Positions 476-55,405 of a stretch of DNA of 64,000 bases are shown in pieces (within the stretch, counting starts at the first letter, position 1; the number at the start of each line of letters is the position of its first letter). The stretch lies in NCBI RefSeq assembly GCF_000217955.3, contig NZ_AFOY02000004.1:1-64000 (forward strand), in the 5' to 3' direction. This DNA is from Pseudomonas fluorescens HK44. Lineage in GTDB: Bacteria; Pseudomonadota; Gammaproteobacteria; Pseudomonadales; Pseudomonadaceae. The notes under the pieces are model-generated. The model saw only the letters and a program-made list of their open reading frames with translations. It searched no databases and had not been told where the DNA came from. The position numbers were made by a program, and so were the translations under genes.

Positions 476-676
476 TCAGGTGTTATCGGTCGACTGAGGT
501 TTGCGTCGATCCTTGCCGGCAGGGTTGCCGGTGTTCAGAAGCCTCCTCTCCACCAGTACATTTTCAAGTGCCTGGCGGTCTGAAGGTTGCAGCTGATGTT
601 CCCTCTCTTTGAGCTCAAGCAGGATCGGGCTGGACCAAGTACGATAGGTCCGCTCGGCCATTCGAATCGGGTTCAT
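476..676 (-). CDS. Small hypothetical protein
   Basis: A 66-residue, charged, helix-rich protein beginning MNPIRMAERT. The start at 676 is preferred over 724 because GGGAGAC lies just upstream. No membrane segment or signal. It reads into the bidirectional terminator at 445-474. Function unknown. Confidence 0.5.
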   Translation of the reverse strand: MNPIRMAERTYRTWSSPILLELKEREHQLQPSDRQALENVLVERRLLNTGNPAGKDRRKPQSTDNT

Positions 677-767
677 TTTCGTCTCCCAGACCAAGTGCGC
701 GCTAACAGCGCGACGCGTTTCCATATCGCGAAAATCCTAGTCGAGAAACCTCGGTGTCGCCACCCGA

Positions 768-1481: not shown

Positions 1482-1767
1482 TGGAAAATCCTCCGGTGGA
1501 GCTTTCAGCTTAGTCGAGTCGCGCCGGGGGTGAGGCGAGTGGATCTATAAACTCGCCAAGACGCGCAGGCCGGCTAGCTTCAGGCTTGAGTTGCGAGCAC
1601 CCGACTCGGCCATCAGATGCTCGAGGGCCGAGGTGGCGAAGACCTGCCACCACTGGCGAATATCGGGGGGCAGGCGTCCGAATCTCGAAGACCAGTCTCG
1701 CCGTCCAACTGCTACGCTTTTTAGGCGCTATCAAATCAATGGCCGAACAAGAAGAGGTCCGAAAACC

Positions 1768-2292
1768 ATGGATAGCACCGAAGGCGTAGTTCAACAGCAT
1801 TCAGCTGGCTGGCGCTTCAAAGTAGGCATCGTCATTATCTGTTTGATGCTGGGATCCTGGCTGATGGTGCCGCTCGCCGCAGTCGCTGATGTGCCTGGCT
1901 CAAAGATCGCGGCGCTGACCGGCGTCCTGTTTATCAGCAACAAAATCTTGTTGATCCTGGTCATCGCGGTCATGGGAAAGTCCGGTTTTCAGCAGTTGAA
2001 ACGCAGCCTGTTCGGTTACGTGGCCGCGCTTGCGCCCAGCCGAGAATTCGAAGTAGGTCCCGCTCGTCACAGAATCGGTCTGGTCATGTTCTGCCTGCCG
2101 CTGATCTCATCCTTTCTTGAACCCTACATCGATAACATCTGGCCTGGGCTCAGACCGAATATCTGGCAGCTGCAACTGTTGGGCGACGCGATGTTGGTCG
2201 GCAGCTTTTTCGTGTTGGGGGGGAATTTCTGGGAGAAGGTACGCGCACTGTTTATCCGAACCGCACGGGTCAGTAACTCAAGCGCTGCCTGA
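1768..2292 (+). CDS. Transporter suffix domain-containing membrane protein
   Basis: A 174-residue integral membrane protein with about four hydrophobic segments, at roughly residues 18-42, 50-68, 95-115 and 135-155. The pattern VMGKSGFQQLK...LFGY followed by IGLVMFCLP and FFVLGGNFWEK matches the small 'transporter suffix' family of Pseudomonas inner-membrane proteins, whose function is not established. The start at 1768 has a purine-rich GAAGAGG site; upstream in-frame ATGs lack one. Confidence 0.7.
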   Translation: MDSTEGVVQQHSAGWRFKVGIVIICLMLGSWLMVPLAAVADVPGSKIAALTGVLFISNKILLILVIAVMGKSGFQQLKRSLFGYVAALAPSREFEVGPARHRIGLVMFCLPLISSFLEPYIDNIWPGLRPNIWQLQLLGDAMLVGSFFVLGGNFWEKVRALFIRTARVSNSSAA

Positions 2293-2320
2293 GATCGAAT
2301 TGAATCTGCGGTGTGTTTTT

Positions 2321-2935
2321 TCAGGCAACCTTTATCTGAATATCTGGCAGTTCACCGCAAGCATGGGCCAGCAAACGCTCAATGGCTCCGCTCAGCAGGT
2401 TCTCCAGCAGTTCGTTGCGTTCCCGATCATCCAGCGGGTGCAGCGCCAGCCAGCTGGGTGCGCTGTTGAGCATGCTGGCAATGGCGTGCCCTGTGGCGAG
2501 CAGGCCTTGTTCACTGAATCGGGGGGTGGGGCAGAGGATCATCAGCAATTGCCGTTCGTAATGTTCCTGCAACTGCCGAACATGCGCTTGCTGATCCTCG
2601 TTCAGGCAACCGCTGTCGCGCTCCACCAGGCGAAAATGCCAGGGCATTTCCCGATGCAGGTTCAGGTGCGCATGGATGACGTTGTGCAGGCTGCTGTGCA
2701 AGTTTCGCGGCTGTCGCTCGAGGCGTCCTAGGGTTGCCAGCAGCTCCTCGTAAAACTCTTCGATCAAGTCGAGCAGCAAGTGCTGCTTGCTCGGGTAATG
2801 GTGATACAGCGAGCCTGGGGCGAGGCCCAGGAACGCTGCCAGCTCACGCATGCCGACCTGGCCAAAACCCTTGCTGGCGAACAGCTCCAGGGCCTTGTCC
2901 CGGCTCTCGGCGAAGCGTGAGCAACGCTCAGCCAT
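2321..2935 (-). CDS. TetR family transcriptional regulator
   Basis: A 204-residue regulator with an N-terminal helix-turn-helix (residues about 8-52, ending GLAPGSLYHHYPSKQHLL, typical of TetR) and a ligand-binding helical C-terminus. The start codon overlaps the stop of the upstream dehydrogenase by 8 bases, so the two are translationally coupled. Longer in-frame extensions upstream run through the dehydrogenase gene and are not credible. It probably controls the thiolase/dehydrogenase operon in response to an acyl-CoA-type ligand; that is inference from context. Confidence 0.85.
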   Translation of the reverse strand: MAERCSRFAESRDKALELFASKGFGQVGMRELAAFLGLAPGSLYHHYPSKQHLLLDLIEEFYEELLATLGRLERQPRNLHSSLHNVIHAHLNLHREMPWHFRLVERDSGCLNEDQQAHVRQLQEHYERQLLMILCPTPRFSEQGLLATGHAIASMLNSAPSWLALHPLDDRERNELLENLLSGAIERLLAHACGELPDIQIKVA

Positions 2936-3779
2936 AGCTATGGAAACCGCGACCGGTCTTGCGCCCCAGATAACCGGCCGCGACCATTTCCTTGAGCAGC
3001 GGAGCGGGGCGGTACTTGCTGTCGTTGAAGCCGTCGTAGAAGGCCTGCATGATCGCCAGCAAGGTATCCAGGCCAATCAGGTCGGCCAGTGCCAACGGAC
3101 CTATCGGCTGGTTGCAGCCCAGACGCATGCCCGCATCGATGTCTTCGGCGCTGGCCAGGCCTTCCTGGAATACCAGGATCGCTTCGTTGATCATCGGCAC
3201 CAGAATCCGGTTCACCACAAAGCCCGGACGGTTACCGGCGGTGATCGCGGTCTTGCCCAGGCGTTGCGCCAGTTCCAGGGCCAGGGTGTGAGTAGCGTCG
3301 CTGGTTTGCAGGCCGCGGATCACTTCGATCAGCCCCATGACCGGCACCGGGTTGAAGAAGTGCAGGCCGATGAAACGCGCCGGCGAACTGACGCTGGCGG
3401 CGAGCTCGGTGATCGACAACGATGAGGTGTTGGAGGCAATCACGCAGTCGGCGCTGACCTGAGCGGCGATCTGTTGCAACACCCGCCGTTTCAGTTCGAG
3501 GTTTTCGGTCGCGGCCTCGATCACCAACTGCACATTGTGCAGGGTGCCGTAGTCGGTGCTGGTGCGGATCTTGTCCAGTGCTGCGAGCTTTTGCTCCTCG
3601 GTCAGCGACGCCTTGGCGACCTGCCGGTCGAGGTTCTTGCCCACGGTCGCCAGCGCTTTTTGCAGGGCGCTGTCGGAGATGTCCAGCAAGGTCACGTTAA
3701 AACCGGCCAGTGCGCAGATTTGCGCAATGCCGTTGCCCATGGTGCCGGCGCCGATGACGCCAATGTTCTGCAGATTCAT
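2928..3779 (-). CDS. 3-hydroxyacyl-CoA (3-hydroxybutyryl-CoA) dehydrogenase
   Basis: A 283-residue NAD(P)-dependent dehydrogenase converting 3-hydroxyacyl-CoA to 3-ketoacyl-CoA. The Rossmann motif GAGTMG is at residues 10-15, the catalytic His is at 140 (GLHFFNPVP), and the C-terminal dimerisation domain starts near GNRPGFVVNRI. Length matches the single-domain short-chain enzymes, not the FadB fusion. The start at 3779 is chosen over 3785 because the GGAAGG site sits 8 bases before it. It lies 16 bp downstream of a thiolase and overlaps a TetR gene, so it is the middle gene of an operon. Confidence 0.9.
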   Translation of the reverse strand: MNLQNIGVIGAGTMGNGIAQICALAGFNVTLLDISDSALQKALATVGKNLDRQVAKASLTEEQKLAALDKIRTSTDYGTLHNVQLVIEAATENLELKRRVLQQIAAQVSADCVIASNTSSLSITELAASVSSPARFIGLHFFNPVPVMGLIEVIRGLQTSDATHTLALELAQRLGKTAITAGNRPGFVVNRILVPMINEAILVFQEGLASAEDIDAGMRLGCNQPIGPLALADLIGLDTLLAIMQAFYDGFNDSKYRPAPLLKEMVAAGYLGRKTGRGFHSYG

Positions 3780-13569: not shown

Positions 13570-13643
13570 GGCCGAGTAGCAAAATGGTTATGCAGCGGAT
13601 TGCAAATCCGCCTACGCCGGTTCGATTCCGACCTCGGCCTCCA
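13570..13643 (+). tRNA. tRNA-Cys (GCA)
   Basis: A 74-nt cloverleaf with encoded CCA. The acceptor GGCCGAG at 13570-13576 pairs with CTCGGCC at 13633-13639. The anticodon loop is TTGCAAA with GCA at 13602-13604, and the T-arm loop is TTCGATT. It is intact, and it marks the left boundary of the prophage. Confidence 0.95.
13611..13643. other. Presumed attL core (3' half of tRNA-Cys)
   Basis: The integrase gene begins its 3' end 100 bp from the tRNA and points toward it. That is the usual layout when a phage recombines into a tRNA 3' end and rebuilds it. The matching attR should repeat some of these bases beyond position 64000. The exact core cannot be set without it. Confidence 0.5.
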
Positions 13644-13653
13644 CTATTAAAAG

Positions 13654-13743: not shown

Positions 13744-14793
13744 TCATTTTGCCGGCTGGGCGATCGCACCGATACGACGATAAACGCGCTTGGTAATCTC
13801 CTGCTCAGAGTGGCCCAGAAGCAAACTCGCATCCGCGATGTCGGTGATTTCCGAGGCTGCTTTTGGTCGGATATCCTTGAACTGGAACTGGCGGATCTTC
13901 TCTGCGTCATCAGTCCAGCCCTCTTTGACCGCCAGCGTTCGAGCCGCTTCCCGGGCGCCATCCCATCGATTGCGCAGCATCTGCTGAGAAACGCGCATCC
14001 CTGACCTGCTGAGGATGAAGTGCTGCGAGCTGTGCTGTTTGTTCCGTTCCATGATTTCCTCAATGAGAAGACCTAGGCTGTTTTTCACACCGCCGGCCTG
14101 CATCTGGATTCGAAGGCGCTTACTGGTTTTTCCTTGCTGCACTGTCAAGTAATCCCCCTCGATGTCTCCACTCGTCATTGCGATAACGTCTGCCGGGCGC
14201 TGCCCTGTTAGATAGGCTAAGTCCATCGCGTCCTTCAGCTCCTGCGGAGCCTGTCCATAAACCGCTGCCCAGACCATGTCGTTGGCGTAGTAGTCCCGGA
14301 CCTTTTCCTTGTTTTTCCGAACGCCTGCGCATGGGTTCTCCCGGTCGGTGAAGCCCCATTCCCGTGCCATGTTGAACACATGGGAGAGAAGGGCAATTTC
14401 TCTGTTCGCCCTGGTCTTGGCTATCCTCGCATCCCGATATTGCGCAACCATGGATGGGGTGATTGCGTCGATTGGCGCGTCTTCAAACCCTTTGCGCAGG
14501 TGCTTGAGCTCAGCCTTGTTGTCCTTCTGCGTGCGCGGCGCCTTCTTCGGGATGATGTCCCGCTCGTACCTGTCAAAAATCCCCATCATGATCTTCAGGT
14601 CGGCCGGCTTGGCCTTGGCTTCCAGTTCGGCCCATTTCAGCCTTGCCTTGTCGAAGTCACTGCCAAGCGACAGCTCCTTGCCGTTCGCATCCCGGTAGTA
14701 GTACCCCACCCAAACAGTTCCGTTCTTTCGGGGTCGCTTACGCCGCACCATCCCTGGCGGCAAATCCCTATTTTCTGTCTTGCGCGGGCGCAT
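13744..14793 (-). CDS. int: Phage tyrosine integrase
   Basis: A 349-residue site-specific recombinase. An N-terminal arm-binding region (about 1-65) and core-binding domain (66-165) precede the catalytic domain. Catalytic residues visible: Arg199 (TGQRPADV), Lys222/225 (GKTSK), Arg309 in KDIR, His328 (LGHS) and nucleophile Tyr338 (KRVYRR). The usual first His of the HxxR box is Lys306 here. It is adjacent to tRNA-Cys and one base from a DUF4224 gene, a common phage arrangement. Confidence 0.93.
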   Translation of the reverse strand: MRPRKTENRDLPPGMVRRKRPRKNGTVWVGYYYRDANGKELSLGSDFDKARLKWAELEAKAKPADLKIMMGIFDRYERDIIPKKAPRTQKDNKAELKHLRKGFEDAPIDAITPSMVAQYRDARIAKTRANREIALLSHVFNMAREWGFTDRENPCAGVRKNKEKVRDYYANDMVWAAVYGQAPQELKDAMDLAYLTGQRPADVIAMTSGDIEGDYLTVQQGKTSKRLRIQMQAGGVKNSLGLLIEEIMERNKQHSSQHFILSRSGMRVSQQMLRNRWDGAREAARTLAVKEGWTDDAEKIRQFQFKDIRPKAASEITDIADASLLLGHSEQEITKRVYRRIGAIAQPAK

Positions 14794-18867: not shown

Positions 18868-19830
18868 TCACGGCGGCCCCGTGCGGCTCTTTGCGTCCAG
18901 CCAGGAACGACATGACAAGAGGGGCAACGGTTGCAGGATGGTCTTCGTCGGGTTCAGCTTTGCGCCAAGGTAGGGCAGGAACGCTTCAACCTCTGTCAGC
19001 CAGGCGTTGAGCTGTTGCGGTGATTCATGCAGAAACACGAAGTCGTCGACGTAGCGAACGTAATGCTTGGCGCCGAGCTTGTGCTTGGCGAACTGGTCCA
19101 GCGCGTCGAGGTACACGTTGGCAAAGAATTGCGATGACAGGTTGCCGATCGGCAGACCGAGGCGTGCCGGCTGCGCGGTGAGGCGTTTGTGCTGCGGTAC
19201 CCGGTTGAACAGATGGGCCGGGCTGCGCACTTCATAGTCTTCGCGAGGGTCGTGCATCAGGATCTGTTCGGCGAGTGCCAACCACCAAGGTTCGGTGATC
19301 TTGGCGGCCAACTGCTTGCGCAGGACCTCTTTGTCGATCGCAACGAAGAAGTTGGCCAGGTCGCACTTCAGGTAGAAAATCGGCTTCGACCAGTTTTGAC
19401 TGGCGCTGCGGATTTTTGCCTCAAGCCGTTTAGCAGCGTACAGCGTGCCGCGCTCTGGGATGCAGGCGCAACTGTCCGCTATGAAGCTGGCGTAGAAGCG
19501 CGGTGCCACACGGTTGTACAGCAGGTGGTGGACGACGCGGTCCCTGAACGCTGCCGCCCAAACCTCGCGGGCTTTCGGGCGGGTGACCACGAAGCATATC
19601 GAACGGCCTGGCCGGTAGGTGCCGGCGATCAGGTCGTCGTGTAGACCGATCAGGTTCTTCTCCAGGTCCATCTCGAAAGCCAGTGCACTGGCGCTGTTGC
19701 GCTTCGTGCGGCGGCAGTCGTAATAAGCCTGAACAAGCTCGCTGAACGGGTAGGGACCAACATTCGAATCTGCGGACGGGGCGGACGCGGAGCTCGTTGT
19801 TCTTGTCGTTGTTGTTGGAGTTGCCATCAT
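18868..19830 (-). CDS. DGR reverse transcriptase
   Basis: 320 residues. It copies TR RNA into cDNA with random changes at adenines; the cDNA then replaces VR sequence in the targets. Motifs: Asp157 in LKCDLANFF, GLPIGNLSSQ at 225-234 (DGR enzymes have SQ where retroviral and group II types have SP), and YVDD at 260-263. No maturase or endonuclease domain, as expected. The only in-frame ATGs (19830, 19827) lie inside the TR, read in a different frame from the repeat, and I see no ribosome site before them. Order on the strand: target 2, target 1, avd, TR, RT. Confidence 0.95.
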   Translation of the reverse strand: MMATPTTTTRTTSSASAPSADSNVGPYPFSELVQAYYDCRRTKRNSASALAFEMDLEKNLIGLHDDLIAGTYRPGRSICFVVTRPKAREVWAAAFRDRVVHHLLYNRVAPRFYASFIADSCACIPERGTLYAAKRLEAKIRSASQNWSKPIFYLKCDLANFFVAIDKEVLRKQLAAKITEPWWLALAEQILMHDPREDYEVRSPAHLFNRVPQHKRLTAQPARLGLPIGNLSSQFFANVYLDALDQFAKHKLGAKHYVRYVDDFVFLHESPQQLNAWLTEVEAFLPYLGAKLNPTKTILQPLPLLSCRSWLDAKSRTGPP

Positions 19831-19870
19831 CGAAGTTCATGTTGAATGCGTTGTTGGCGGAGCGCTGCGA
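19771..19870 (-). repeat. DGR template repeat (TR)
   Basis: 100 bp, read on the minus strand. The first bases and the last 26 (GC-rich, encoding ELRVRPVR) match all VRs. The core is packed with AAC codons, giving NNAFNMNFDDGNSNNNDKNN if translated in the VR frame. AAC codons cannot become stops when A is mutated, the usual TR design. About 27 adenines lie in the core. Five further bases on the left (19766-19770) match VR2. Confidence 0.95.
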
Positions 19871-20041
19871 CCTATCGTGCTATCTACGTCGCCAAGCCGA
19901 AGGCAGGGCCGATCAGCGAGGAAACTACGCGAGACCTGCACGGACGCTTTAGACCGTCGGTATCTCTGATGCGTATGGCGGTGACCCAGAGGTCAGCGGC
20001 ACGACCAGATTCAATTCGCACAGACCTGAAAGCCGTGACTC

Positions 20042-20398
20042 TCAGGTGGCGGGCGCGGTTGGGGTGGAGCGTTTCCAGGCATTGGCCTGTTTGCCGATTG
20101 AGGTGGTGACCTCGATCGCGGTGGCGTGCTGCCCGACACTGATGAACCGGCTCTCTTTGAAAAGCCGCATCAGGAACTCGATCACCTGGACCTTCTCAAC
20201 CAGCAAGGTCAGGTGTGGGCGCTTGTCCCGGGTCGAGTTAGCCCGGGCAATCAACATCAGCACGTCGATGCACTCATCGATGACTCGCTTTCCGAGAGAC
20301 TGCTTGAGATCTCGGGGTATGTTGCGAGTGAGGTTCGTGGCCATCTGAAGCAGGCCGAGCGAAGCCTTATAGATGCTCAAATCCGTGTGCATCGCCAT
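20042..20398 (-). CDS. avd: DGR accessory variability determinant (Avd-like four-helix protein)
   Basis: 118 residues, all helical and basic, beginning MAMHTDLSIYKASLGLL and containing PRDLKQSLGKRVIDECIDVL. This matches the Avd / four-helix-bundle family that binds the DGR reverse transcriptase and TR RNA as a pentamer. It sits between target 1 and the TR, the standard position. The start at 20398 has GGAGAG nine bases upstream; 20419 is an alternative. Confidence 0.88.
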   Translation of the reverse strand: MAMHTDLSIYKASLGLLQMATNLTRNIPRDLKQSLGKRVIDECIDVLMLIARANSTRDKRPHLTLLVEKVQVIEFLMRLFKESRFISVGQHATAIEVTTSIGKQANAWKRSTPTAPAT

Positions 20399-20419
20399 TC
20401 GGCAGCTCTCCAAGAGCAA

Positions 20420-20437
20420 CCGGCCGCAAGCGGCCGG
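20420..20437 (-). promoter_or_regulatory. GC hairpin downstream of VR1 (candidate DGR cruciform)
   Basis: On the minus strand CCGGCCG-CTTG-CGGCCGG forms a 7-bp stem with a 4-nt loop, 31 bases past the VR1 end and just after the target stop. DGRs often have a short hairpin or cruciform with a 4-nt loop here that boosts retrohoming. No T-run follows, so a terminator is less likely. Confidence 0.55.
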
Positions 20438-20451
20438 ATTAAATAAGCGAA

Positions 20452-21072
20452 TTAATCAATCAATTGACTGCGGACGGGGCGGACGCGGAGCTCGTAGCTC
20501 TTGCCGCTGGTGTCGGAGTAGCCATCATCGAAGAGCATGAGGAATGCGTAGTCGGCGGAGCGCTGCGAAGATGACCAGTACCAGGTTGGTTTAAAGGCTT
20601 CAGCGCCACCAGCCTGGAAGGCTTCCATCGTGGTCTGGGCTGGCGAGTCTTCAGTGTGAAGCAGCCCCACAGGCTCGCTGTTCGGGTTGTCACCGCTGCG
20701 ACCGTACTGCCAGTTCGTTTCGGTTGTCGGCTTGAAGAGGCGGTATTGCAGCTCTTGCACGTCTCGGGCCGGGATCGCCCAGTCGGTGAAGCCGCCGATA
20801 TCCAGAGCTAGCACTTGCTGTGCTAGTTCGCTGCCAGCGGCCGCCATCGCTTCGGTGTTGGCGCGGCTGCTGGTGAAGCTGTTAGCACCCTCGATCTTTT
20901 CGCCGTACTCGCCCCAGGCACCGCTCAGTTCGTGCGCGGCGCCGGCGGTGATGTTCAGGTAGCGCTTGCCGGTGTCCGGGTCACGGGTGATACCAGAGAA
21001 GAAGCCGCCGCCGTAGGCTTGGCCGATTTCCGGGATAGTTATTGCTGGCGCTGCTTGCTGTGCTGCTGACAT
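20452..21072 (-). CDS. DGR target protein 1 (C-type-lectin-like variable protein)
   Basis: 206 residues. The middle and C-terminus (FTDWAIPARDVQELQYRLF ... YWSSSQRSA ... ELRVRPVR) have the formylglycine-enzyme/DUF1566-like C-type lectin fold used by DGR targets, with the VR forming the ligand-binding face at residues about 168-201. No signal peptide or membrane segment. The start at 21072 is chosen for AGAGGAAAG upstream; 21099 would run through the terminator. Avd follows 53 bp downstream. The ligand is unknown. Confidence 0.9.
   Translation of the reverse strand: MSAAQQAAPAITIPEIGQAYGGGFFSGITRDPDTGKRYLNITAGAAHELSGAWGEYGEKIEGANSFTSSRANTEAMAAAGSELAQQVLALDIGGFTDWAIPARDVQELQYRLFKPTTETNWQYGRSGDNPNSEPVGLLHTEDSPAQTTMEAFQAGGAEAFKPTWYWSSSQRSADYAFLMLFDDGYSDTSGKSYELRVRPVRSQLID
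20469..20568 (-). repeat. DGR variable repeat 1 (VR1)
   Basis: Exactly 100 bp, aligning to the TR without gaps. By eye there are 13 differences and all 13 fall on TR adenines (T on the plus strand). The outer blocks, including the 26-bp GC-rich end, are identical. This is the signature of adenine-directed mutagenic retrohoming. Confidence 0.95.
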
Positions 21073-21097
21073 GGTCTTTCCTCTTTTCGAAGGCAAC

Positions 21098-21117
21098 AAA
21101 AAAGGCGCTGCTGCGCC
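21098..21117 (-). terminator. Terminator between targets 2 and 1
   Basis: GGCGC-AGCA-GCGCC followed by T6 on the minus strand. It lies after target 2 and immediately before the ribosome site of target 1. Target 1 and the RT would therefore need antitermination or their own promoter. Confidence 0.8.
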
Positions 21118-21162
21118 CGGTGCCGATCAAGAACGAATGATTGAAGGATTAAATAAAGAATC

Positions 21163-21262
21163 TGCGGACGGGGCGGACGCGGAGCTCGTTGCCCTTGTCG
21201 TTGTAGGTCTGAGTGCCATCAGCGAAGGTCATGCCGAATGCGAAGCTGGCGGAGCGCTGCGA
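21163..21262 (-). repeat. DGR variable repeat 2 (VR2)
   Basis: 100 bp matching the TR, with five extra matching bases (GAATC) at the IMH side. About 12 differences fall on TR adenines. A block at 21213-21216 also differs at four non-adenine positions (TR codon TCC and its neighbour read CAG), equivalent to a one-base gain plus a one-base loss. Confidence 0.92.
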
Positions 21263-21612
21263 ACTCGACCAGTAGCAATCCTTCGCGAACAGTTCCGGCA
21301 CGTTCACCCAGCAGTGGTACAGCTCGGCACAGGCTGGCAGGTAGAAGTCGTGATGACCGTCTGCCTGGTGTTCGGCGCATGCATCTGCTGCTGGATACTT
21401 TCTCTCGTCATCGTTGCCAATCAGTACCTGCGTGTTGCTATAGCCGTCGGTCTTGCTGAGGCCTTCCACCTCAACTCCACGGCCACCCCACTCAAGACTG
21501 CCGACATCCTTGGCTGCGATGATCAGGTAGTGCGCCGGCACATCGCCACGAGTCGCTACCAGACCTCCGTTGAAACCACCTTGGCCGGGCCACTCAGCGC
21601 CGAGCGCCGGGA

Positions 21613-21662
21613 TGTTGGTTGGTGCGATTGGCTGGACTGTTGGTTGGTGCGATTGGCTGGAC
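21613..21662. repeat. Perfect 25-bp tandem duplication in target 2
   Basis: Two identical 25-bp copies (21613-21637 and 21638-21662), each starting TGTTGGTTGGTGCG and ending GGCTGGAC. On the coding strand each contains CCAATCGCACCAACC. Because 25 is not a multiple of 3, one extra copy breaks the frame. Confidence 0.95.
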
Positions 21663-21810
21663 ATTCGCAGCTGGCGGTAGCACCAGGGCAAACGTACTGG
21701 CCAGCGCCAGTTTTGCCAGTTGTGACGCGGGCATCTTGATCGTGGTGTCGCCGTGCTTGAGGGTGATCATTTCAGGTTTCATCGTGATACCTCTTTATGT
21801 GAAGTTGAAG

Positions 21811-22121
21811 TTATTCGTCGTGGCAGATGCGCAGAGCCTCTCGGTTGTAGGCGAGCTCCAATTTGCGCGACACGTTTTCGGGTATTGCGTAATTGTGTCG
21901 CGGAGGTGCGAAGAATGGCGCTGAACCCTGCGGTCCGAGGGCATGCAGATGATGTAGGGCCAAGGTCATTGCCTCGCCTTGCTCATCGATCTGGTGCCAC
22001 TCCATCAAGTCGGCCAACACCTGCCGGGACCGGCCATGGCATGCATTCGCAACTCTTCCTCGCCGCGAGTCTTTCGTCTCGCCGCAGCCTTGGCTGAGCG
22101 GTCTTTCGGTTCGGCAGCCAT
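21811..22121 (-). pseudogene. Phage hypothetical gene, apparently frameshifted
   Basis: A strong start at 22121 (AGGAG, 7 bases, ATG) gives MAAEPKDRSAKAAARRKTRG and ends at a stop at 22005. A second frame entering at 22020 continues VLADLMEWHQIDEQGEAMTL to the stop at 21811. Together they look like one basic-N-terminus, roughly 100-residue phage protein split by a one-base shift near 22022. Alternatively the second part starts at its GTG (22020). Confidence 0.5.
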
Positions 22122-22130
22122 CGTCAACTC

Positions 22131-22769
22131 CTATCGCTTTGGCTCTTTCGCGAAAAAGGCCGGCTGAGGGCCGCTGCTAGCCTTCGGATAGTCAATATCG
22201 AACTTTGCCAGTAGCCGCTCGAAGTTTTTGGCGGTGGATTGGATGCTTTCTCGCGCCTTATTTCTGCTGAATCCGAGTGCTTTGAACTCCTTGATCATCT
22301 CGGCGTTCTTGGCGTCCCGCTCATCATCAACAATCTTTCCGCCCTTGTTGGCCCGGGTATGTGCTGGCTGGAACTTGAAGTCACCCTTCTTGGCAATCCT
22401 GTTCAGCTCGCGGAGCGGAATCCCTGTGCACAGAACTGCTTGTGCGTAGGTCATGGTCTCAGCCAGGCAACGGATATGTTCCACCTGTTCAGCCTTAGCC
22501 TGTTCGCGCATTGCCGCCCGCTCTTCGCGCTCGATGTCGCGCTGAGCCAGCTTGTCGAGCCATTTAGGCTCAACTGCTTTCTGGACTGGCTTGACCTTCT
22601 TGCGTGGTGGCGGCTCATGGCGAATCGGCGGAGGGATGAAGTTCGGCCCTTGCAATACCTCAATAGTCCCTCCTTTGTTCAAGAAGGCTTCCTGAAGTAG
22701 GGCCAGTTCGTGGCGTTGAGGGTCGAGCATCTGGATCATGGAAAGCTCAGTGCTGACGTATGCGTTCAT
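22131..22769 (-). CDS. Phage hypothetical protein, basic
   Basis: 212 residues. A proline-rich linker (about 45-65, PPPIRHEPPPRKKVK) is followed by a charged coiled coil (75-110) and a helix-turn-helix-like stretch (TYAQAVLCTGIPLRELNRIA, about 110-130). It may bind DNA. It lies next to the exonuclease gene, but no family is recognised. Confidence 0.55.
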   Translation of the reverse strand: MNAYVSTELSMIQMLDPQRHELALLQEAFLNKGGTIEVLQGPNFIPPPIRHEPPPRKKVKPVQKAVEPKWLDKLAQRDIEREERAAMREQAKAEQVEHIRCLAETMTYAQAVLCTGIPLRELNRIAKKGDFKFQPAHTRANKGGKIVDDERDAKNAEMIKEFKALGFSRNKARESIQSTAKNFERLLAKFDIDYPKASSGPQPAFFAKEPKR

Positions 22770-22782
22770 GCTGCTTTACCTC

Positions 22783-23424
22783 TCACGCCGCCTTTTTCAT
22801 AAGGCGAATGACCATGTCATCGACACCGCGAAGAAAGTCGACTATCTCGACTTCGTAGTCTGCGATTGCCTTTTCATTGCGCTCGACGCGGTGAATGAAT
22901 AGCTGTAGATGCTCGGGCATGCGCGGATCGAACGAGACGAAATCAGCGAACTCCGCATCCGATGCCCACATGTTGTGTAGGATCTGCGGGGCATGCTCTG
23001 GTGGTAGGCGATCAGCTTCAAGGTAACCAAGGTGCGTGGCACTCTTCGGGCACTTGGCTTCCCATACGCCTTTGCGGCCCTGGTCCTCGATGAACCCATC
23101 CACGCTGCAACCGGCCATGAAGTCGGTCAGGCAGATGAATCCGCACTCTTGAACGATCAGGCCAGTTTTCTGTTCGTAGGCCATGCGGGCGAACGGCTCT
23201 TGCTCGGTGCCCCACATCATTTCCTTGCTGACGAAGAAGTCATCGGCGGGTAGGCCGGTTAGACGCTCAAGGCCAAGCTGGATTCGGTAATCGCGCCGCG
23301 TCGCTGCTTCGCCTGATTTGATTGCCGCCAGGATGTCCTTGGCGCGCGAGCCGGTTGCGCGTCCTGCACGGTCCTGCTTCCATTCAAGGGTGCCCTGGGC
23401 ATGAGTTGAGATAGTGGATTTCAT
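22783..23424 (-). CDS. YqaJ/lambda-type viral exonuclease
   Basis: 213 residues of the lambda exonuclease fold, degrading double-stranded ends for recombination. Seen: an early WGTEQEPFAR, then the catalytic D-E-K set in SVDGFI and GVWEAKCPKSATHLGYL. Overlaps the next gene upstream by 4 bases (ATGA). With the two genes upstream it forms a Red-like recombination cassette. Confidence 0.88.
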   Translation of the reverse strand: MKSTISTHAQGTLEWKQDRAGRATGSRAKDILAAIKSGEAATRRDYRIQLGLERLTGLPADDFFVSKEMMWGTEQEPFARMAYEQKTGLIVQECGFICLTDFMAGCSVDGFIEDQGRKGVWEAKCPKSATHLGYLEADRLPPEHAPQILHNMWASDAEFADFVSFDPRMPEHLQLFIHRVERNEKAIADYEVEIVDFLRGVDDMVIRLMKKAA

Positions 23425-24317
23425 TGGGGAATCTCCTCAAATTCGACTTCGTCATCGGCATCCGACTGTTCCGGCTCCGACTCAGCTTTAGGTGCGGAGG
23501 CTTTCAGCACTACGCCGCGAGCACCGACCGCCGTCTTAAATGCATCGTAAGAGGTCATGTCCTTGACCTCATTGATGGCCGAAACGCCGGCCTTCCATAC
23601 CTCGGTGAGAGCTTCCGGGGTTGCCGCTGCGTTGGCTTGGGCGATCCAGTGAGCGGCAAGTTCTGGATCATGCGGCGCCGGGCCAGGCTTCTGATTGGTG
23701 GTCTGGGTACCTTCCTGCGGCCGAAGCTCTTCCGGCAGGTCTTCAATGTCCTGCGTGAAGATGTCCGAAGCGGCGGTTACGTTCAGCGTCATGGCGATCA
23801 TGGCGCGCTTGCAGGCCATCTTTAGAATGGTGTTGGCAAGATCGGCGGCCTCGGTGCGGACCTGATCTGCGGTGTTGCCGTTTTTGTAGTACTTCTTCCG
23901 ACGCAGGTTTTCCGGGGTTGCGTTCAGCTCCGCCTTGCAGATCACGGCACGCCACTTGTACTTTTCTTCGTTGGACGAGCATTCTCCAACGCCTTCGCCC
24001 AAGGCTACGCCGGTCGTCTGGTGACGCCCCATACAGGTGACGCGGTAGCGGGCCTCGCCTTGCACTGACAGGTCTTCGATCTTGTATTCCTGCGCCACCC
24101 GGAAGGTCACGCACAGCACCTCAGCGCCGGGCTTGTAGAGGGTCGGCTTATTGGTGCCAGGGATGGTGCCGTAGTGGGTCTCACGCTTCATGATGTCTCG
24201 CATCACTTCCTGCACCAGGTTAACGCGCTGGCGAATCTCGACGGCAGAGAAGCGGTGTGCCTCGGCGGCGGTAAGGCCAGAGGTCTCGCGCGCTGGCATT
24301 TGGATAATCTCGTTCAT
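23421..24317 (-). CDS. Conserved phage protein of the recombination cassette
   Basis: 298 residues. The block HYGTIPGTNKPTLYKPGAEV, then YRVTCMGRHQTTGVALGEG and VGECSSNEEKYKWR, is shared by many proteobacterial phages next to exonuclease genes. The C-terminus is acidic (DADDEVEFEEIPQ), as in ssDNA-binding partners. A role as the single-strand annealing partner of the exonuclease is inferred from position only. Confidence 0.7.
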   Translation of the reverse strand: MNEIIQMPARETSGLTAAEAHRFSAVEIRQRVNLVQEVMRDIMKRETHYGTIPGTNKPTLYKPGAEVLCVTFRVAQEYKIEDLSVQGEARYRVTCMGRHQTTGVALGEGVGECSSNEEKYKWRAVICKAELNATPENLRRKKYYKNGNTADQVRTEAADLANTILKMACKRAMIAMTLNVTAASDIFTQDIEDLPEELRPQEGTQTTNQKPGPAPHDPELAAHWIAQANAAATPEALTEVWKAGVSAINEVKDMTSYDAFKTAVGARGVVLKASAPKAESEPEQSDADDEVEFEEIPQ

Positions 24318-24324
24318 GACGACC

Positions 24325-24888
24325 TCAGTAGGTGATAGCGATGGCTGGAATCTTGCGCTGAGCGATGAGGGTGATCGCCTGCTTCGCGCATTCCTCGGTC
24401 ATACCGCCAGCAACAAAAGCGTCGAGTGCCGCGCGATTGATCTTGGCTTTGTGGGCCTTGTCAGCCTCGCGCAGCTTCTCTTGGCGCAGGATCTCGTCGG
24501 CGGCGGCCTTCTGGCGGGCGATCTCGTCTTGCTTGGCCTTTTCAACTGCAGCCTTCTGGTTCTCGATGGCTGCCAGCCGATCACGCTCGGCCTTTTGTTC
24601 GGCCTCTATCTGTTCACGCTTTGCCTGCTCAGCCTTGCGCTCAGATTCGGCGGCAGCGAGCTTCAGATCGTTCTCGCGCTTCTCGGCGGCAACCTTGGAC
24701 TTGCTGACCTTGGCGGCCAGCGAGGCGATACGGTCGCGGCCCTTGGCGGTGGACAGGTCCGGTACCTGGGAGCCTACTTCCTCCTTCACCGCTTGTAGGA
24801 ATGGCTTCAGGCCGTCCTTCACGTAGATGGCCGGAGCATTGGCTTCGCTGATGTCGTCGATGGTGACGGCAAGCTGATTGGCGGACAT
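24325..24888 (-). CDS. Coiled-coil phage protein
   Basis: 187 residues. Residues 60-145 are an almost uninterrupted Ala/Glu/Lys/Gln coiled coil; the N-terminus (VTIDDISEANAPAIYVKDGL) and the C-terminus (LDAFVAGGMTEECAKQAITL) flank it. This type sits at the head of many recombination cassettes; its role is unknown. RBS AAGGAA at the ATG. Confidence 0.65.
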   Translation of the reverse strand: MSANQLAVTIDDISEANAPAIYVKDGLKPFLQAVKEEVGSQVPDLSTAKGRDRIASLAAKVSKSKVAAEKRENDLKLAAAESERKAEQAKREQIEAEQKAERDRLAAIENQKAAVEKAKQDEIARQKAAADEILRQEKLREADKAHKAKINRAALDAFVAGGMTEECAKQAITLIAQRKIPAIAITY

Positions 24889-24931
24889 GGGGATTCCTTG
24901 CCGCCATGCAGGCAGCGCTTGAAGTTATTGT

Positions 24932-25048
24932 TTATTGAGTGACGCGATCAGCGAGAGCACCGAGCAGCATCAGGAAGGTGAAGACGGCGAGAGCAGGGAA
25001 GGAGCCGCGCCAGATCAGAAGTCGGCGTGCGCGTTGGTGAGAGGTCAT
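24932..25048 (-). CDS. 38-residue membrane microprotein
   Basis: MTSHQRARRLLIWRG followed by a single hydrophobic segment (FPALAVFTFLMLLGALA). Its ATG overlaps the upstream stop by 4 bases, supporting expression. Basic residues before the helix predict the N-terminus inside. Confidence 0.5.
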   Translation of the reverse strand: MTSHQRARRLLIWRGSFPALAVFTFLMLLGALADRVTQ

Positions 25049-25242
25049 GGCTTCAGCTCCTCGTCTGGGTCAAGGCCGAACTCACGACAAAGCGCATATG
25101 CCACGCCCGATCCGACTCCAAAAATATCCATGAAGAGAATCCAGCGCTGATTCATGTATCCGCCGCGCCGTTTCCCGCGCATGTTTCGCATGACACTTTC
25201 CAGCAGCTCGCGCTCAGTGTATTCGCATCCTGAGAGCATCAT
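25045..25242 (-). CDS. Small phage hypothetical protein
   Basis: 65 residues, with a hydrophobic centre (WILFMDIFGVGSGVAYAL) that may be one membrane segment. Overlaps both neighbours by 4 bases. No family recognised. Confidence 0.55.
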   Translation of the reverse strand: MMLSGCEYTERELLESVMRNMRGKRRGGYMNQRWILFMDIFGVGSGVAYALCREFGLDPDEELKP

Positions 25243-25424
25243 TCCGCCACCGCCTCAGCCAAGCTGATCTTCTTCCACGATGGTGGCAGCTTTACGGCTG
25301 CGATCTTGCCGTCGTCGTTGGCTTGCAAGATGCTCAGGATCATGTGTTCCATGCCCTGTGGCACTTTAGCGTTACAGAGTTGGCCGTCGACTTCGATGAT
25401 GATTTGCACGATCGAGATGTTCAT
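25239..25424 (-). CDS. Small phage hypothetical protein
   Basis: 61 residues (MNISIVQIIIEVDGQLCNAK...). The start at 25424 is set by a 4-base overlap with the upstream microprotein; the longer in-frame ATG at 25571 runs across two other genes. Compact alpha/beta, unknown role. Confidence 0.55.
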   Translation of the reverse strand: MNISIVQIIIEVDGQLCNAKVPQGMEHMILSILQANDDGKIAAVKLPPSWKKISLAEAVAE

Positions 25425-25540
25425 CGCGACACCGCCACAGGCAGGCTGATCTGCCGAGGCGCGCCGGTTTCTTTGAATAGGCTGTATTGCATGAGCCAGA
25501 TGGTCAGGCCACAGGCGAGGATCCAGTAGAAGGTCTTCAT
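25421..25540 (-). CDS. 39-residue membrane microprotein
   Basis: MKTFYWILACGLTIWLMQYS is a membrane-spanning or signal-like segment, followed by a polar tail. A strong GGAGG ribosome site and a 4-base overlap downstream support it. Confidence 0.55.
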   Translation of the reverse strand: MKTFYWILACGLTIWLMQYSLFKETGAPRQISLPVAVSR

Positions 25541-25542
25541 TG

Positions 25543-25674
25543 CTACTCCCTCCAATACTGAATCGGCACAAAGGTGTATTGCCCTGGTCCGTGCCGATGG
25601 ACCCGCCACAGGTCCAAGTCGATGCGCTTCAGGAGTTCGTCGAAGGTGCAAATGCGAGTGGCGAGGCGTTTCAT
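25543..25674 (-). CDS. 43-residue phage protein
   Basis: MKRLATRICTFDELLKRIDL... ends YTFVPIQYWRE. The start overlaps the upstream stop by 4 bases. A small basic protein with no recognised family. Confidence 0.5.
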   Translation of the reverse strand: MKRLATRICTFDELLKRIDLDLWRVHRHGPGQYTFVPIQYWRE

Positions 25675-25868
25675 GGAGACACCTCAACCAGCCGGCCTCT
25701 AGGGTCTATATCCCAGTCGCCCTCCATGAATGCGCCGTTGTCACGGCAATGATGACGCCAGCTGCCTTTCACTGGGCATTCAAGCTCGCATACGAGGGTT
25801 TCGCGCGGACGCTTGAGAACCCCTTCCAACTCTTCGTCGATCAGGGTTTTTACCAGGGAAGTTGTCAT
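25671..25868 (-). CDS. Small phage hypothetical protein
   Basis: 65 residues: MTTSLVKTLIDEELEGVLKR, then two Cys (CELECPV) and an acidic end. Coupled to both neighbours by 4-base overlaps. Confidence 0.5.
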   Translation of the reverse strand: MTTSLVKTLIDEELEGVLKRPRETLVCELECPVKGSWRHHCRDNGAFMEGDWDIDPRGRLVEVSP

Positions 25869-26026
25869 TCCGGATCTCCATGCCGATCGTGTCGGGCGTC
25901 GTCGAAGCCGAGCTGCCAGCTGAACGCCTCGTTACTGCCGTACTCATACGGGTTGCAAGTGGTCTTGCCGTAGGCCAGGAAGCCTTCGCCGTACTTGCAG
26001 TTGGGATTCACAGTTATCTTGAGCAT
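25865..26026 (-). CDS. Ribosome-modulation-factor-like small protein
   Basis: 53 residues with NPYEYGSNEAFSWQLGFDDA, the NPY...W..GF..A pattern of Rmf/CrpP-like proteins. In hosts such proteins bind ribosomes or other targets; a phage role is unproven. AAGGAG lies 8 bases before the ATG. The start lies within the upstream gene (13-base overlap). Confidence 0.5.
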   Translation of the reverse strand: MLKITVNPNCKYGEGFLAYGKTTCNPYEYGSNEAFSWQLGFDDARHDRHGDPE

Positions 26027-26226
26027 GCAGACAACTCCTTGCGCTGCCGGCTGATCTTCAGCAGCTTGGCGCTGTAGTGGTGGAATTCTTCGGCGGTGAT
26101 GTCGCTGGCGGTGAAGTGGCGGACGATCAGGCCCTCAGTGAGGGTTTCGTCAAGATCGGTCGCCTCTGGCAGTTCAAGGGCTTCCAGTGCCCGGTCGATG
26201 GCGATGTGCGGGCTCAAAATCCGCAC
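26014..26226 (-). CDS. Small phage hypothetical protein
   Basis: 70 residues, helical and acidic in the first half, basic at the end (KLLKISRQRKEL). Overlaps neighbours on both sides. No family recognised. Confidence 0.5.
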   Translation of the reverse strand: MRILSPHIAIDRALEALELPEATDLDETLTEGLIVRHFTASDITAEEFHHYSAKLLKISRQRKELSACSR

Positions 26227-26663
26227 CGTCGCTTTTCATGGTCAGCTTCGCGCTTGGCCTCGATGTACTCGTCGACCTTGCTCTCGACCAGCGCATCAGC
26301 CAGGGCATGAATGACCGTGCCTTCGCCCTGATGAGGCCCTAGCGCCGAGACTGCCCACTTGTACAGATGGTCATCCGTATGGCCGCGACGGACGATCTCG
26401 ATCAGGATCTTTTCGATTCCGCACTCCTGGTCTAGCTGGGCTTCCATGTGGGTGACCACGGAGCGGACCAGATCCTTGTGCCGGACCAGTTCGCGCTCAC
26501 GCCCCCAAGGGTTCGGGGCATAGGCGGACCCTTGGTCCATAAGGTCCTCTATTGCCGCCTTCTTCCACTCGGCGACGTCTTGCTCGTCAACCGGCGCCTC
26601 TTCGTCTTCCGGAGGCAGCATGTTGTCGTACCGCGCCTGGCAATCTCTCAGTGCTTCTTGCAT
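26214..26663 (-). CDS. Phage hypothetical protein
   Basis: 149 residues, acidic N-half (PPEDEEAPVDEQDVAEWK) and helical C-half. Overlaps its neighbours by 13-16 bases. Function unknown. Confidence 0.55.
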   Translation of the reverse strand: MQEALRDCQARYDNMLPPEDEEAPVDEQDVAEWKKAAIEDLMDQGSAYAPNPWGRERELVRHKDLVRSVVTHMEAQLDQECGIEKILIEIVRRGHTDDHLYKWAVSALGPHQGEGTVIHALADALVESKVDEYIEAKREADHEKRRCGF

Positions 26664-26791
26664 GGCCGAACCCTCCGACGTTTAACCGCTGGCACGAACA
26701 CGCACGCCAGGCCGTAAAGCTCTGCATTCGAAAAGCATGTACGCAGGAGAAGCGCGTCGGCTTCACGGTTGCGCGGGATGCTGGTGTTCAT
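26648..26791 (-). CDS. 47-residue phage protein
   Basis: MNTSIPRNREADALLLRTCF... with a very basic end (VKRRRVRPCKKH). The GGAGG site 5 bases before the ATG fixes the start at 26791. Unknown role. Confidence 0.5.
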   Translation of the reverse strand: MNTSIPRNREADALLLRTCFSNAELYGLACVFVPAVKRRRVRPCKKH

Positions 26792-26997
26792 GATTTCCTC
26801 CAACTGTTTGGTTGCTGAAAACACTCGGCTGCACTCATCCATTCCACTGGTTGCCGTTGGGCGTGGAGGGGAGTGCATGCGGGTGGATTCGGAGGGAAGT
26901 GGGTGCAGGCGGCCGGCACGTCCCGGCACGTATCAGGTCTGGCCACGCCGACTCGCGCAGCCCCTCGATTCACCTGCAAAGAAGAGCAATAAATGAA

Positions 26998-27576
26998 TTA
27001 ACGAATGAATAATCTGCGGACGGGGCGGACGCGGAGCTCGTTGACCTTGACGCCGCCGTAGTAGGAGTAGCCACCACCGAAGACCATGGTGAACGCGAAG
27101 TCGGCGGAGCGCTGCGTGCTGGTCCAGTACGCCCCTTTGGTAATCAGTCCATTCACCCACACCTGGTGCATATCTGCAGGTGAGCCTAGGAAGAAGTCAT
27201 GGTGACCGTCGGCGGTGTATTTGGCGGCGGCGTTGGCGGCAGGGCGATCACCTTCCGATACAAGCTGCTCGGTGTTCCTCATGCCGTCCCACTTGCTTGT
27301 GGCGCCAGATTCGATACCGCGACCGCCCCATGCGTGCTCACCGACGTCCTCGGTGGCGAGGATGAGGTAGTGGAAAGGAGCACCTTCGCGAGCTGGAACT
27401 GGGCCGCCATTCACACCGCCTTGGCCGGGCCAGTAATCGCCCAGCGCCGGAATGAAGTCGGTGGCCTGAGTGTTGGCTGGCGCGGCACCGACAAGGCCGG
27501 TCAGCACTTGTAGAGCCAGCGCGGCGCAAGGAGTGGTTAGTGTGGTTGCGCCGTGGTTTACGGTAATCAGTTGCAT
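26998..27576 (-). CDS. DGR target protein 3 (remote C-type-lectin-like variable protein)
   Basis: 192 residues, an intact homologue of target 2. It begins MQLITVNHGATTLTTPCAAL with a hydrophobic stretch, then PALGDYWPGQGGVNGGPV, HYLILATEDVGEHAWGGRG, ADGHHDFFLG and YWTSTQRSA leading into VR3 at residues about 155-188. This is the C-type lectin fold of DGR targets. It lies 7.1 kb upstream of the TR on the same strand. The start at 27576 has AAGGAA upstream; 27615 lacks one. The hydrophobic start resembles a weak signal or membrane anchor but is not a clear signal peptide. It is followed by 206 bp without a gene. Confidence 0.9.
   Translation of the reverse strand: MQLITVNHGATTLTTPCAALALQVLTGLVGAAPANTQATDFIPALGDYWPGQGGVNGGPVPAREGAPFHYLILATEDVGEHAWGGRGIESGATSKWDGMRNTEQLVSEGDRPAANAAAKYTADGHHDFFLGSPADMHQVWVNGLITKGAYWTSTQRSADFAFTMVFGGGYSYYGGVKVNELRVRPVRRLFIR
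27015..27116 (-). repeat. DGR variable repeat 3 (VR3)
   Basis: 102 bp (99 TR-equivalent plus one inserted codon). About 18 substitutions, all at TR adenines, with a 3-bp in-frame insertion in the run between the GGG and VNEL codons. The 26-bp GC-rich end is identical to the TR. Confidence 0.93.
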
Positions 27577-31944: not shown

Positions 31945-32583
31945 TCAGTAGCGGCCGAGCACCTTGCTGGGCGCGAGGATGTTGCCGACGTAGTGGATCT
32001 TCTCGATGTCGCTGCGCTCGATCGTCCGGCGCTCACCATAGGCAGCATTGACCGACATCAGGCTGACTTCTTCATCGTTCTGGAACAGCAGCTCCTTGAC
32101 CATGCTCTGGCCGTCCAGGGTGGTCACCATGACGTACTCGCCGGGAACCAAGCGGTGGTTCGGCTCGCAAATGGCTACCCAGCCATTGCGGATGGCTGGG
32201 GCCATGGAATCGCCTTTGAGCCTCAAGGCATAAGCATCCTCATCCCGCGAGTAGGTTTCAACCCAGCCATCGGCCTGATTGACGCCGATCCAATAGCCGT
32301 CCGGCCCAAGCTGAGCGGTGCCCACAATGTCGATCCTTCGCGGAGGGGAGGTTATTGGTGGTCCGGGCTCAACGTTTGACTCTGCCGCTCCAGATCCGTC
32401 AGACAGCCACACAGGGTCGACGCCACATACCTGCGCAAGCTTTACCAGATAACCGCTGGTGCGCGTAAGGCCTCGCTCTATCTCGGAAACGGAGGCCTGC
32501 TTTATTCCTGCGCGTTCGGCGAGCTGGGCCTGCGTTAGACCTGCATCTTTGCGAGCTTTTTTCAGTCTGTCTTTGAGTTCCAT
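31945..32583 (-). CDS. cI: CI-type prophage repressor (XRE + S24 peptidase)
   Basis: 212 residues. Helix-turn-helix at 4-60 (LTQAQLAERAGIKQASVSEI); a LexA/CI-type S24 domain from about 85 with Ser126 (GDSMAP) and Lys163 (SMVKE) as the self-cleavage dyad. Cleavage probably falls near GTAQLG (88-93). It should hold lysogeny by binding the three OR sites just upstream and the two OL sites 3 kb left, and be inactivated in the SOS response. The start at 32583 precedes the HTH; the in-frame ATG at 32643 would run through the operators. Confidence 0.92.
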   Translation of the reverse strand: MELKDRLKKARKDAGLTQAQLAERAGIKQASVSEIERGLTRTSGYLVKLAQVCGVDPVWLSDGSGAAESNVEPGPPITSPPRRIDIVGTAQLGPDGYWIGVNQADGWVETYSRDEDAYALRLKGDSMAPAIRNGWVAICEPNHRLVPGEYVMVTTLDGQSMVKELLFQNDEEVSLMSVNAAYGERRTIERSDIEKIHYVGNILAPSKVLGRY

Positions 32584-32595
32584 GACCGGAAAGAT

Positions 32596-32657
32596 AAAGG
32601 GCAGCCTTTGAAGTTGCAAAAAGGTGTTCCTTTGCTCTAACATAAAGGCATCCCTTT
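32596..32657. promoter_or_regulatory. OR: three 14-bp operators at exact 24-bp spacing
   Basis: AAAGGGCAGCCTTT (32596-32609), AAAGGTGTTCCTTT (32620-32633) and AAAGGCATCCCTTT (32644-32657) share perfect AAAGG/CCTTT arms. Start-to-start distance is 24 bp in both cases, placing them on nearly the same helix face. They lie between CI and Cro, as OR3-OR2-OR1 do in lambda. Confidence 0.88.
32614..32643 (+). promoter_or_regulatory. Rightward early promoter PR (candidate)
   Basis: TTGCAA at 32614-32619 and TAACAT at 32638-32643 with an 18-bp spacer, embedded among the OR operators and 30 bp ahead of cro. A moderately good match. Confidence 0.6.
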
Positions 32658-55338: not shown

Positions 55339-55405
55339 AAAAGCCCCAAGCGCGCCAACGCTTGAGGCTCATGAAGCAGAACGTCAATCTACTAGGAAAA
55401 ACGTC

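What the first reader, a model, noticed from the sequence alone, without database searches (positions are those of the whole stretch)
18868..27576. A three-target diversity-generating retroelement in the leftward operon of a prophage
One TR, an Avd-like protein and a DGR-type reverse transcriptase serve three C-type-lectin-like targets. All lie on the integrase-side strand of a lambdoid-type prophage, not in the tail-fibre module where phage DGR targets usually sit. None of the targets has a clear signal peptide. The system might diversify proteins made early or in the lysogen, such as receptors, anti-host factors or superinfection proteins, though they could still be added to virions.
Basis: partly seen in the sequence, partly recalled or inferred. 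Interest (0 to 1): 0.95.

Follow-up and report, generated by a model that had tools for sequence, protein, structure and literature searches.

The report
Retroelement editing a prophage's early genes
A Pseudomonas-like prophage carries a retroelement whose adenine-only marks indicate that it likely rewrote three small lectin-like genes lying on the integrase strand rather than in the tail genes; its reverse transcriptase lacks the end that relatives keep, so this copy is likely silent, while relatives with a complete enzyme sit in the same place in many other phages, where the edited proteins would act inside the infected cell.

Summary
Observation confirmed: one TR, an Avd, a DGR-type RT, an RT-15 RNA and three VR-bearing lectin-like targets lie on the integrase strand of a 54-kb prophage. 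VR1 and VR3 differ from the TR only at adenines (13/30 and 17/30; 0/69 elsewhere).

(1) The element is broken: the RT ends where 37 of 37 relatives continue into motif 7 and the thumb, and a 25-bp tandem duplication splits target 2. (2) VR2 fits the relatives' TR, not the present one: the TR changed, VR1 and VR3 carry the new text, VR2 the old.

The layout is a conserved class. In 7 of 7 distinct DGR phages every VR found in the whole record is on the RT strand; in the 5 whose repressor and integrase are both named there, all lie between the two. VRs on the RT strand were found in 31 of 33 genome regions of the genus. VR-bearing homologues also occur in 16 phage records with no RT match, nine of them jumbo phages. 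Phage Magia's announcement already reported one such DGR without discussing its early position in the passages I saw. What the targets bind is untested; I favour soluble proteins acting in the cell. New variant of a known kind; this copy is likely a recent fossil.

The parts
18868..19830 (-). DGR reverse transcriptase, truncated: departs from all compared relatives after residue 302 (about 18925), before motif 7 and the thumb
19770..19868 (-). template repeat (TR), with the GC-rich IMH-like end at 19770-19795; overlaps the 5' end of the open RT frame
19868..20058 (-). RT-15 RNA (RF03018), between Avd and TR, full model length
   Evidence: 179.4 bits, gathering 82, E 1.6e-44
20042..20419 (-). 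Avd accessory protein gene
20452..21072 (-). target 1, DUF1566/Lcl_C protein of 206 aa (listed ORF runs to 21099)
20468..20566 (-). VR1, written from the present TR (13/30 A, 0/69 other)
21149..21691 (-). target 2, lectin part in one frame; its native start and N-terminal part (21594-21782) are in another frame
21613..21662 (-). exact 25-bp tandem duplication that splits target 2
21162..21260 (-). VR2, fits the relatives' TR (12/31 A, 0/68 other), not the present TR (12/30 A, 4/69 other)
26998..27576 (-). target 3, 192 aa, predicted C-type-lectin fold behind a small N-terminal hairpin-helix part (listed ORF runs to 27615)
27014..27115 (-). VR3, written from the present TR (17/30 A, 0/69 other, three extra bases)
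22783..24317 (-). YqaJ-type exonuclease (22783-23424) and a phrog_10048 gene (23421-24317): recombination-type genes between target 3 and target 2
31945..32643 (-). CI-type repressor, upstream end of the leftward gene block
13744..14793 (-). integrase, downstream end of the leftward gene block
13596..13652 (.). attL, 57 bp exactly repeated at 68027-68083 of the contig (attR, outside the window), overlapping the tRNA-Cys gene

Best explanation
This is a prophage diversity-generating retroelement whose reverse transcriptase ends before the motif-7 and thumb part that all 37 compared relatives keep, so the element, which likely rewrote its three lectin-like targets at template adenines until recently, is likely silent now, and its targets are predicted to be soluble early proteins that would act in the infected or lysogenic cell rather than as tail fibres. 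In the intact relatives (mechanism inferred from known DGRs) an RNA that holds the RT-15 segment and the TR is copied by the RT with Avd, with errors at adenines, and the cDNA replaces the VR of each target next to the conserved GC-rich IMH. In the window the sequence gives an order of events: the TR took on a new text in one short stretch, VR1 and VR3 carry the new text and VR2 the old; when the RT lost its end and when target 2 was split is not known. The function is inferred and untested: early-made binding proteins, each with a variable lectin domain behind its own N-terminal part, facing a fast-changing partner inside the cell, such as host defence or rival-phage proteins.
For: DGR: RT, Avd, TR, three VRs, RT-15 RNA; adenine-only differences; in 40 homologues of target 1 the ten AAC codons average 2.91 bits of entropy against 0.44 for the 169 residues before the VR. 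Broken: RT end missing against 37 of 37 relatives and against 71 of 77 IMG/VR stretches with the relatives' TR, the other 6 being 4 cut by an edge and 2 without RT in the stretch; alignment to PDB 8ub7 stops at residue 247 against 288 for a relative; end not elsewhere in the genome; target 2 split. TR change: with the old TR text in 77 IMG/VR stretches and the new in none. Placement: all IMH copies of whole records on the DGR strand in 7 of 7 distinct phages, between named repressor and named integrase in 5 (Cruim01, Haboob, Magia, phPA-G, QDWS); VRs on the RT strand in 31 of 33 genome regions. Host phages have unlike tails: the window's phage has a sheath and Magia is a myophage, whereas D3 is a siphophage (recalled); D3 has a VR-bearing homologue as the next annotated gene after cI. 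Lectin fold.
Against: No expression or virion data. Early timing rests on operon position. In SC_8 the one annotated integrase is on the other strand, with terminase. LPPA56 has no named repressor. VRs were not found in 2 of 33 genome regions (L068, L069). VR1 and VR3 show no decay, so the RT loss may be very recent; the truncated RT was not assayed. Foldseek found no match at E <= 0.001 for target 3; the lectin match comes from a re-alignment with middling Z except the first row. The target 1 model failed (pLDDT 46). No signal-peptide predictor was run.
Confidence: 0.62

Rival explanations
1. The targets are accessory virion adhesins: made from the left operon but added to virions, so that the DGR tunes adsorption as in Bordetella phage BPP-1.
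For: Viral DGR targets of clades 1, 4 and 6 are mostly tail proteins (PMC8144416). The lectin fold is the usual adhesin scaffold of DGRs.
Against: No IMH copy in the tail genes of this genome or on the late strand of 7 of 7 phages. The window's phage has its own tail-fibre-like ORF without a VR (naming is my reading). The family occurs in phages with unlike tails and in jumbo phages.
Confidence: 0.2
2. The targets work as fixed proteins and diversification matters little now: the cassette is kept for the lectin proteins and the retroelement is often lost.
For: VR-bearing targets occur in 16 of 16 tested records with no RT match. PMG1 and the D3-type records share VR and flanks. Within the jumbo VR types almost no A column changes. 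G221 has a 2669-bp insertion in Avd.
Against: All 21 genomes with target 1 (of 396) also have the RT. The AAC codons are the most variable positions of target 1. Within each phage TR and VRs keep the same non-A text while it differs between phages, which implies continued rewriting.
Confidence: 0.25
3. The element in the window is still active: the short RT suffices, a co-resident phage supplies RT in trans, or the truncation is an assembly error.
For: VR1 and VR3 carry no non-adenine change against the TR; TR, RT-15 RNA and Avd look intact.
Against: The missing part holds motif 7 (recalled as primer grip) and the thumb. The two other RT-like matches in the genome are weak (E 3.6e-4 and 7.0e-4) and the genome holds no other IMH copy. 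The junction is an out-of-frame fusion to the end of another gene, not a homopolymer slip. It was not seen in a second record, so an assembly error is not excluded.
Confidence: 0.1

Closest known systems
Burkholderia phage Magia DGR (NC_070954; PMC7883833, passages seen)
   Same: Avd, RT, RT-side targets on the integrase strand, one target close to the repressor and two next to Avd; RT about 69% identical.
   Different: Magia's RT is complete. The paper names two targets, genes 47 and 57; the scan shows a third VR in gp46.
Pseudomonas phages Cruim01 and SC_8_H2H8_2017
   Same: Closest isolated relatives by RT (89.7% over 88%); same order of two targets, Avd, TR, RT; Cruim01 also has a distal target and an annotated RT-15 RNA.
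   Different: RT complete; old TR text; SC_8 shows no distal target.
Bordetella phage BPP-1 DGR (PDB 8ub7; that this entry is the BPP-1 RT is recalled)
   Same: RT homology (E 1.1e-29), Avd family, adenine-specific TR/VR pair, lectin-fold targets; BPP-1 details recalled.
   Different: BPP-1's target is a tail protein (PMC8144416); here the targets are on the integrase strand and the RT is truncated.
RT-less VR carriers: phage D3 orf68 and the PA5oct group of jumbo phages
   Same: VR-bearing homologue of target 1; next annotated gene after cI in D3 and within the terminal repeat in PA5oct.
   Different: No RT match in the whole records.

Membership tests
Diversity-generating retroelement (DGR) | TR/VR pairs that differ at template adenines | tested here: met
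   VR1 13/30 A and 0/69 other; VR3 17/30 and 0/69; VR2 12/31 and 0/68 against the relatives' TR
Diversity-generating retroelement (DGR) | RT of the DGR type beside the TR | tested here: met
   phrog_1423, E 3.6e-98; homologous to the RT of PDB 8ub7
Diversity-generating retroelement (DGR) | Avd accessory protein | tested here: met
   bAvd and phrog_3206; no PDB match by sequence
Diversity-generating retroelement (DGR) | C-terminal VR in a C-type-lectin-fold target, next to a conserved IMH | tested here: met
   VRs at the 3' ends of all three targets; IMH-like 26-mer in TR and VRs; lectin fold shown for the target 3 model only
Working DGR | RT complete through motif 7 and thumb | tested here: not met
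   ends after residue 302 where 37 of 37 relatives continue
Working DGR | new adenine substitutions appear in the VR in culture | not testable with these tools
   needs VR amplicons
Tail-fibre DGR of the BPP-1 kind | target gene in the late tail module | tested here: not met
   all 4 IMH copies of the genome are on the integrase strand; whole-record scans of 7 phages likewise
Tail-fibre DGR of the BPP-1 kind | target protein is part of the virion | not testable with these tools
   needs virion mass spectrometry

The most novel reading that the evidence does not exclude
Temperate phages of Pseudomonas, Burkholderia and Shewanella run an antibody-like repertoire inside the cell: early-made lectin proteins, diversified by a phage retroelement, that recognise fast-changing host-defence or rival-phage proteins. 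The variable genes circulate on their own, even into RT-less jumbo phages, and there a resident prophage's DGR rewrites them in trans: in PA5oct the VR is a near-pristine product of a Haboob-like TR (15/32 A, 1/64 non-A), while the gene on both sides of it matches its jumbo sister Ettore.
Probability: 0.2. Interest if true: 0.92.

Novelty: new variant of a known kind. Interest (0 to 1): 0.62.

Why it matters
Phage DGRs are usually read as machines for changing tail fibres. A conserved class whose diversified proteins come from the repressor-to-integrase block, in phages with unlike tails, would point to a second use of targeted hypermutation, inside the cell. It turns an open question (what non-structural viral DGR targets do) into a plain experiment: are the targets in the virion, and what do variants bind? 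The window itself is useful as a fossil: an RT-damaged element with undecayed VRs and a TR change caught half-way orders the writing of each VR relative to the template.

Tried and rejected
Group II intron or retron: rejected; the RT sits with Avd, TR and VRs, and its best phage family is phrog_1423.

RT completed elsewhere in the genome: the missing end gave a best E of 0.44.

A second record with the same junction or TR: junction 29-mer 0 in IMG/VR and 0 in GTDB contigs; window-type TR 36-mer 0 and 0. The tools may leave out records very near the window.

Target 1 without RT in the genus: none of the 21 genomes (of 396, own included) with target 1 at E <= 1e-20 lacks the RT; isolated phage records do. 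One search warned that an empty answer alone shows nothing; the same query rang in 4 of 4 DGR phages.

Structure: the target 1 model failed (pLDDT 46) and was not searched. Foldseek gave no match at E <= 0.001 for target 3 (best 0.8). A profile search of target 3 homologues gave one weak PDB hit, 8q4e HbP1, E 0.015, not followed beyond one paper search.

Trans rewriting in jumbo phages: the replaced tract cannot be delimited, because beyond the first 80 bases the jumbo gene bodies compared are themselves 91-100% alike to Haboob's; short-tract recombination fits as well. Between several jumbo types the differences are not confined to A columns, so most of those VRs look old.

Sub-threshold Rfam hit sX6 at 24529-24707 (25.7 bits, gathering 40): taken as chance.

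Literature: ten searches, of which one search was on PA5oct and on a PDB name, listed no paper whose title or abstract start describes early-operon DGR targets as a class. Seen: PMC8144416 passages and section 9; PMC7883833, PMC10053308 and PMC10743442 passages only; all others as search listings.

Rows dropped before counts: of 36 other RT places, 33 were fetched; G391 (3.3-kb contig), G286:C153 and G126 (35% identity, partial) were not. One search was given 18 of the 31 other RT-bearing genomes and 4 phage records; it matched in 20 of 22, missing G370 and Magia, whose IMH differs (Magia then done).
Full report
What is there. The window lies in a 6.2-Mb genome (G000 contig C8). I call it Pseudomonas-like because the named homologues of its targets are Pseudomonas; no tool named the organism. 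A prophage begins in a tRNA-Cys gene: a 57-bp exact repeat joins 13596-13652 to 68027-68083, so the prophage is about 54 kb. Integrase, recombination-type genes and a CI-type repressor (31945-32643) are on the minus strand; replication protein O, terminase, portal, tail sheath, tape measure and baseplate genes are on the plus strand. Beyond the window follow a 626-aa ORF and others that I read as tail fibre and lysis genes (naming is mine).

The retroelement. On the minus strand, in order of transcription, lie target 3, recombination-type genes, target 2, target 1, Avd, an RT-15 RNA, the TR and the RT. VR1 and VR3 differ from the TR at 13 and 17 of 30 adenines and at 0 of 69 other positions. 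The IMH-like 26-mer occurs only in these four places of the genome.

It is broken. In 37 of 37 relatives (4 phage records, 33 genome regions) the RT continues past the point that corresponds to residue 302 into a DFVG segment and some 80 residues; the window's does not. Of 77 IMG/VR stretches that carry the relatives' TR, 71 show the segment, 4 are cut by an edge and 2 hold no RT within the stretch. Against PDB chain 8ub7 (328 aa) the window's RT aligns up to residue 247 and a relative's up to 288, through the corresponding segment. That this is motif 7 (primer grip) and that the thumb follows is recalled knowledge. In its place the frame runs out of register into the end of another gene. Target 2 is split, with an exact 25-bp tandem duplication between its two frames; an undivided homologue is P0182.

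It worked until recently. VR1 and VR3 carry no non-adenine change. VR2 has 4 non-adenine mismatches against the present TR, all within one short stretch, but 12/31 adenine mismatches and 0/68 others against the TR of the relatives. So the TR text changed, VR1 and VR3 carry the new text and VR2 the old. Whether target 2 was already split by then cannot be told. The new TR text was found in no IMG/VR or GTDB contig, the old in 77 IMG/VR stretches.

It belongs to a class. The RT was found in 32 of 398 genus genomes, own included. At least one VR besides the TR, on the RT strand, was found in 31 of 33 genome regions and in 4 of 4 phages; the two regions without are L068 and L069. A distal VR like that of target 3 is in 7 of 33 regions, a lower bound because stretches end. 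Whole-record IMH scans of the 7 distinct DGR phages gave 3 copies in SC_8, 4 in Cruim01, 3 in Haboob, 3 in phPA-G, 4 in QDWS, 3 in LPPA56 and 4 in Magia, TR included, on the DGR strand each time. Three of the 7 (Cruim01, QDWS, Magia) thus have a third, distal target; in QDWS it lies between the repressor and RecT. Repressor and integrase are both named on the DGR strand, with all copies between them, in Cruim01, Haboob, Magia, phPA-G and QDWS. LPPA56 has a named recombinase on that strand but no named repressor; in SC_8, sparsely annotated, the one integrase named is on the other strand with terminase. An IMH scan of 18 whole bacterial genomes matched in 17, always at DGR cassettes except that two G221 copies lie on a second contig's end.

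VRs without a retroelement. Sixteen phage records with VR-bearing homologues of target 1 have no RT match: Aurca01, Medea1, U7, U9, D3, phi_D3, PMG1 and nine jumbo phages. PMG1 and the D3-type records share VR and flanks, so that case says little about time. The jumbo VRs form four types. PA5oct's is close to a fresh copy of a Haboob-like TR (15/32 A, 1/64 other), while the gene around it resembles its sister Ettore (93-99% before and 91-100% after the VR, 78% within). Import of a short tract, by recombination or by retrohoming in trans, explains this; the data cannot separate the two.

Verdict. Observation confirmed; interpretation partly supported. The window's copy is likely a recent fossil of a conserved class of DGRs in the repressor-to-integrase block. 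Of that class the papers I saw describe one member, Magia (PMC7883833).

Noticed in passing
L079 6001-6438 and L080-L087 2001-2438: Nine RT-less jumbo phage records carry DGR-type VRs in a target 1 homologue; four VR types, with VR much less alike than the gene around it in most pairs.
   Followed up: partly
L078 8016-8576: Phage D3 orf68, the next annotated gene after cI, is a VR-bearing homologue of target 1; the D3 reference record has a frame-disturbing difference inside the VR that phi_D3 and PMG1 lack.
   Followed up: partly
L036 12163-12627: Magia gp46 carries a third VR that the genome announcement does not name among its targets in the passages seen.
   Followed up: yes
L195 and L197 (QDWS 44694-45131): Shewanella phage QDWS has a distal third target between repressor and RecT, the same place as the window's target 3.
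   Followed up: yes
L039 (G221), RT-oriented 557-3227: A 2669-bp insertion splits Avd; one long frame in it reads like an ISL3-type transposase (my reading): a second damaged element of the class.
   Followed up: partly
L060 and L061 (G361): Two prophages of one genome carry the same VR letter for letter in the 119 bases printed, beside TRs that look the same.
   Followed up: no
L055 (G271): The TR has G where both VRs have A: the TR changed after the VRs were written, a second case of a TR that moved on.
   Followed up: no
window 20420-20437 and 21104-21117: Short GC-rich perfect inverted repeats a few dozen bases downstream of VR1 and VR2; VR3 has none evident by eye. They could be hairpins that aid retrohoming, or terminators (read by eye).
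   Followed up: no
window 55319-56272: An anti-repressor Ant-like gene sits among the tail genes on the plus strand.
   Followed up: no
L075 and L034: Aurca01 and Cruim01, both with host P. syringae CC1557, have alike left blocks, but Aurca01 has the VR-bearing targets without RT and a RecB-like gene in that place.
   Followed up: partly
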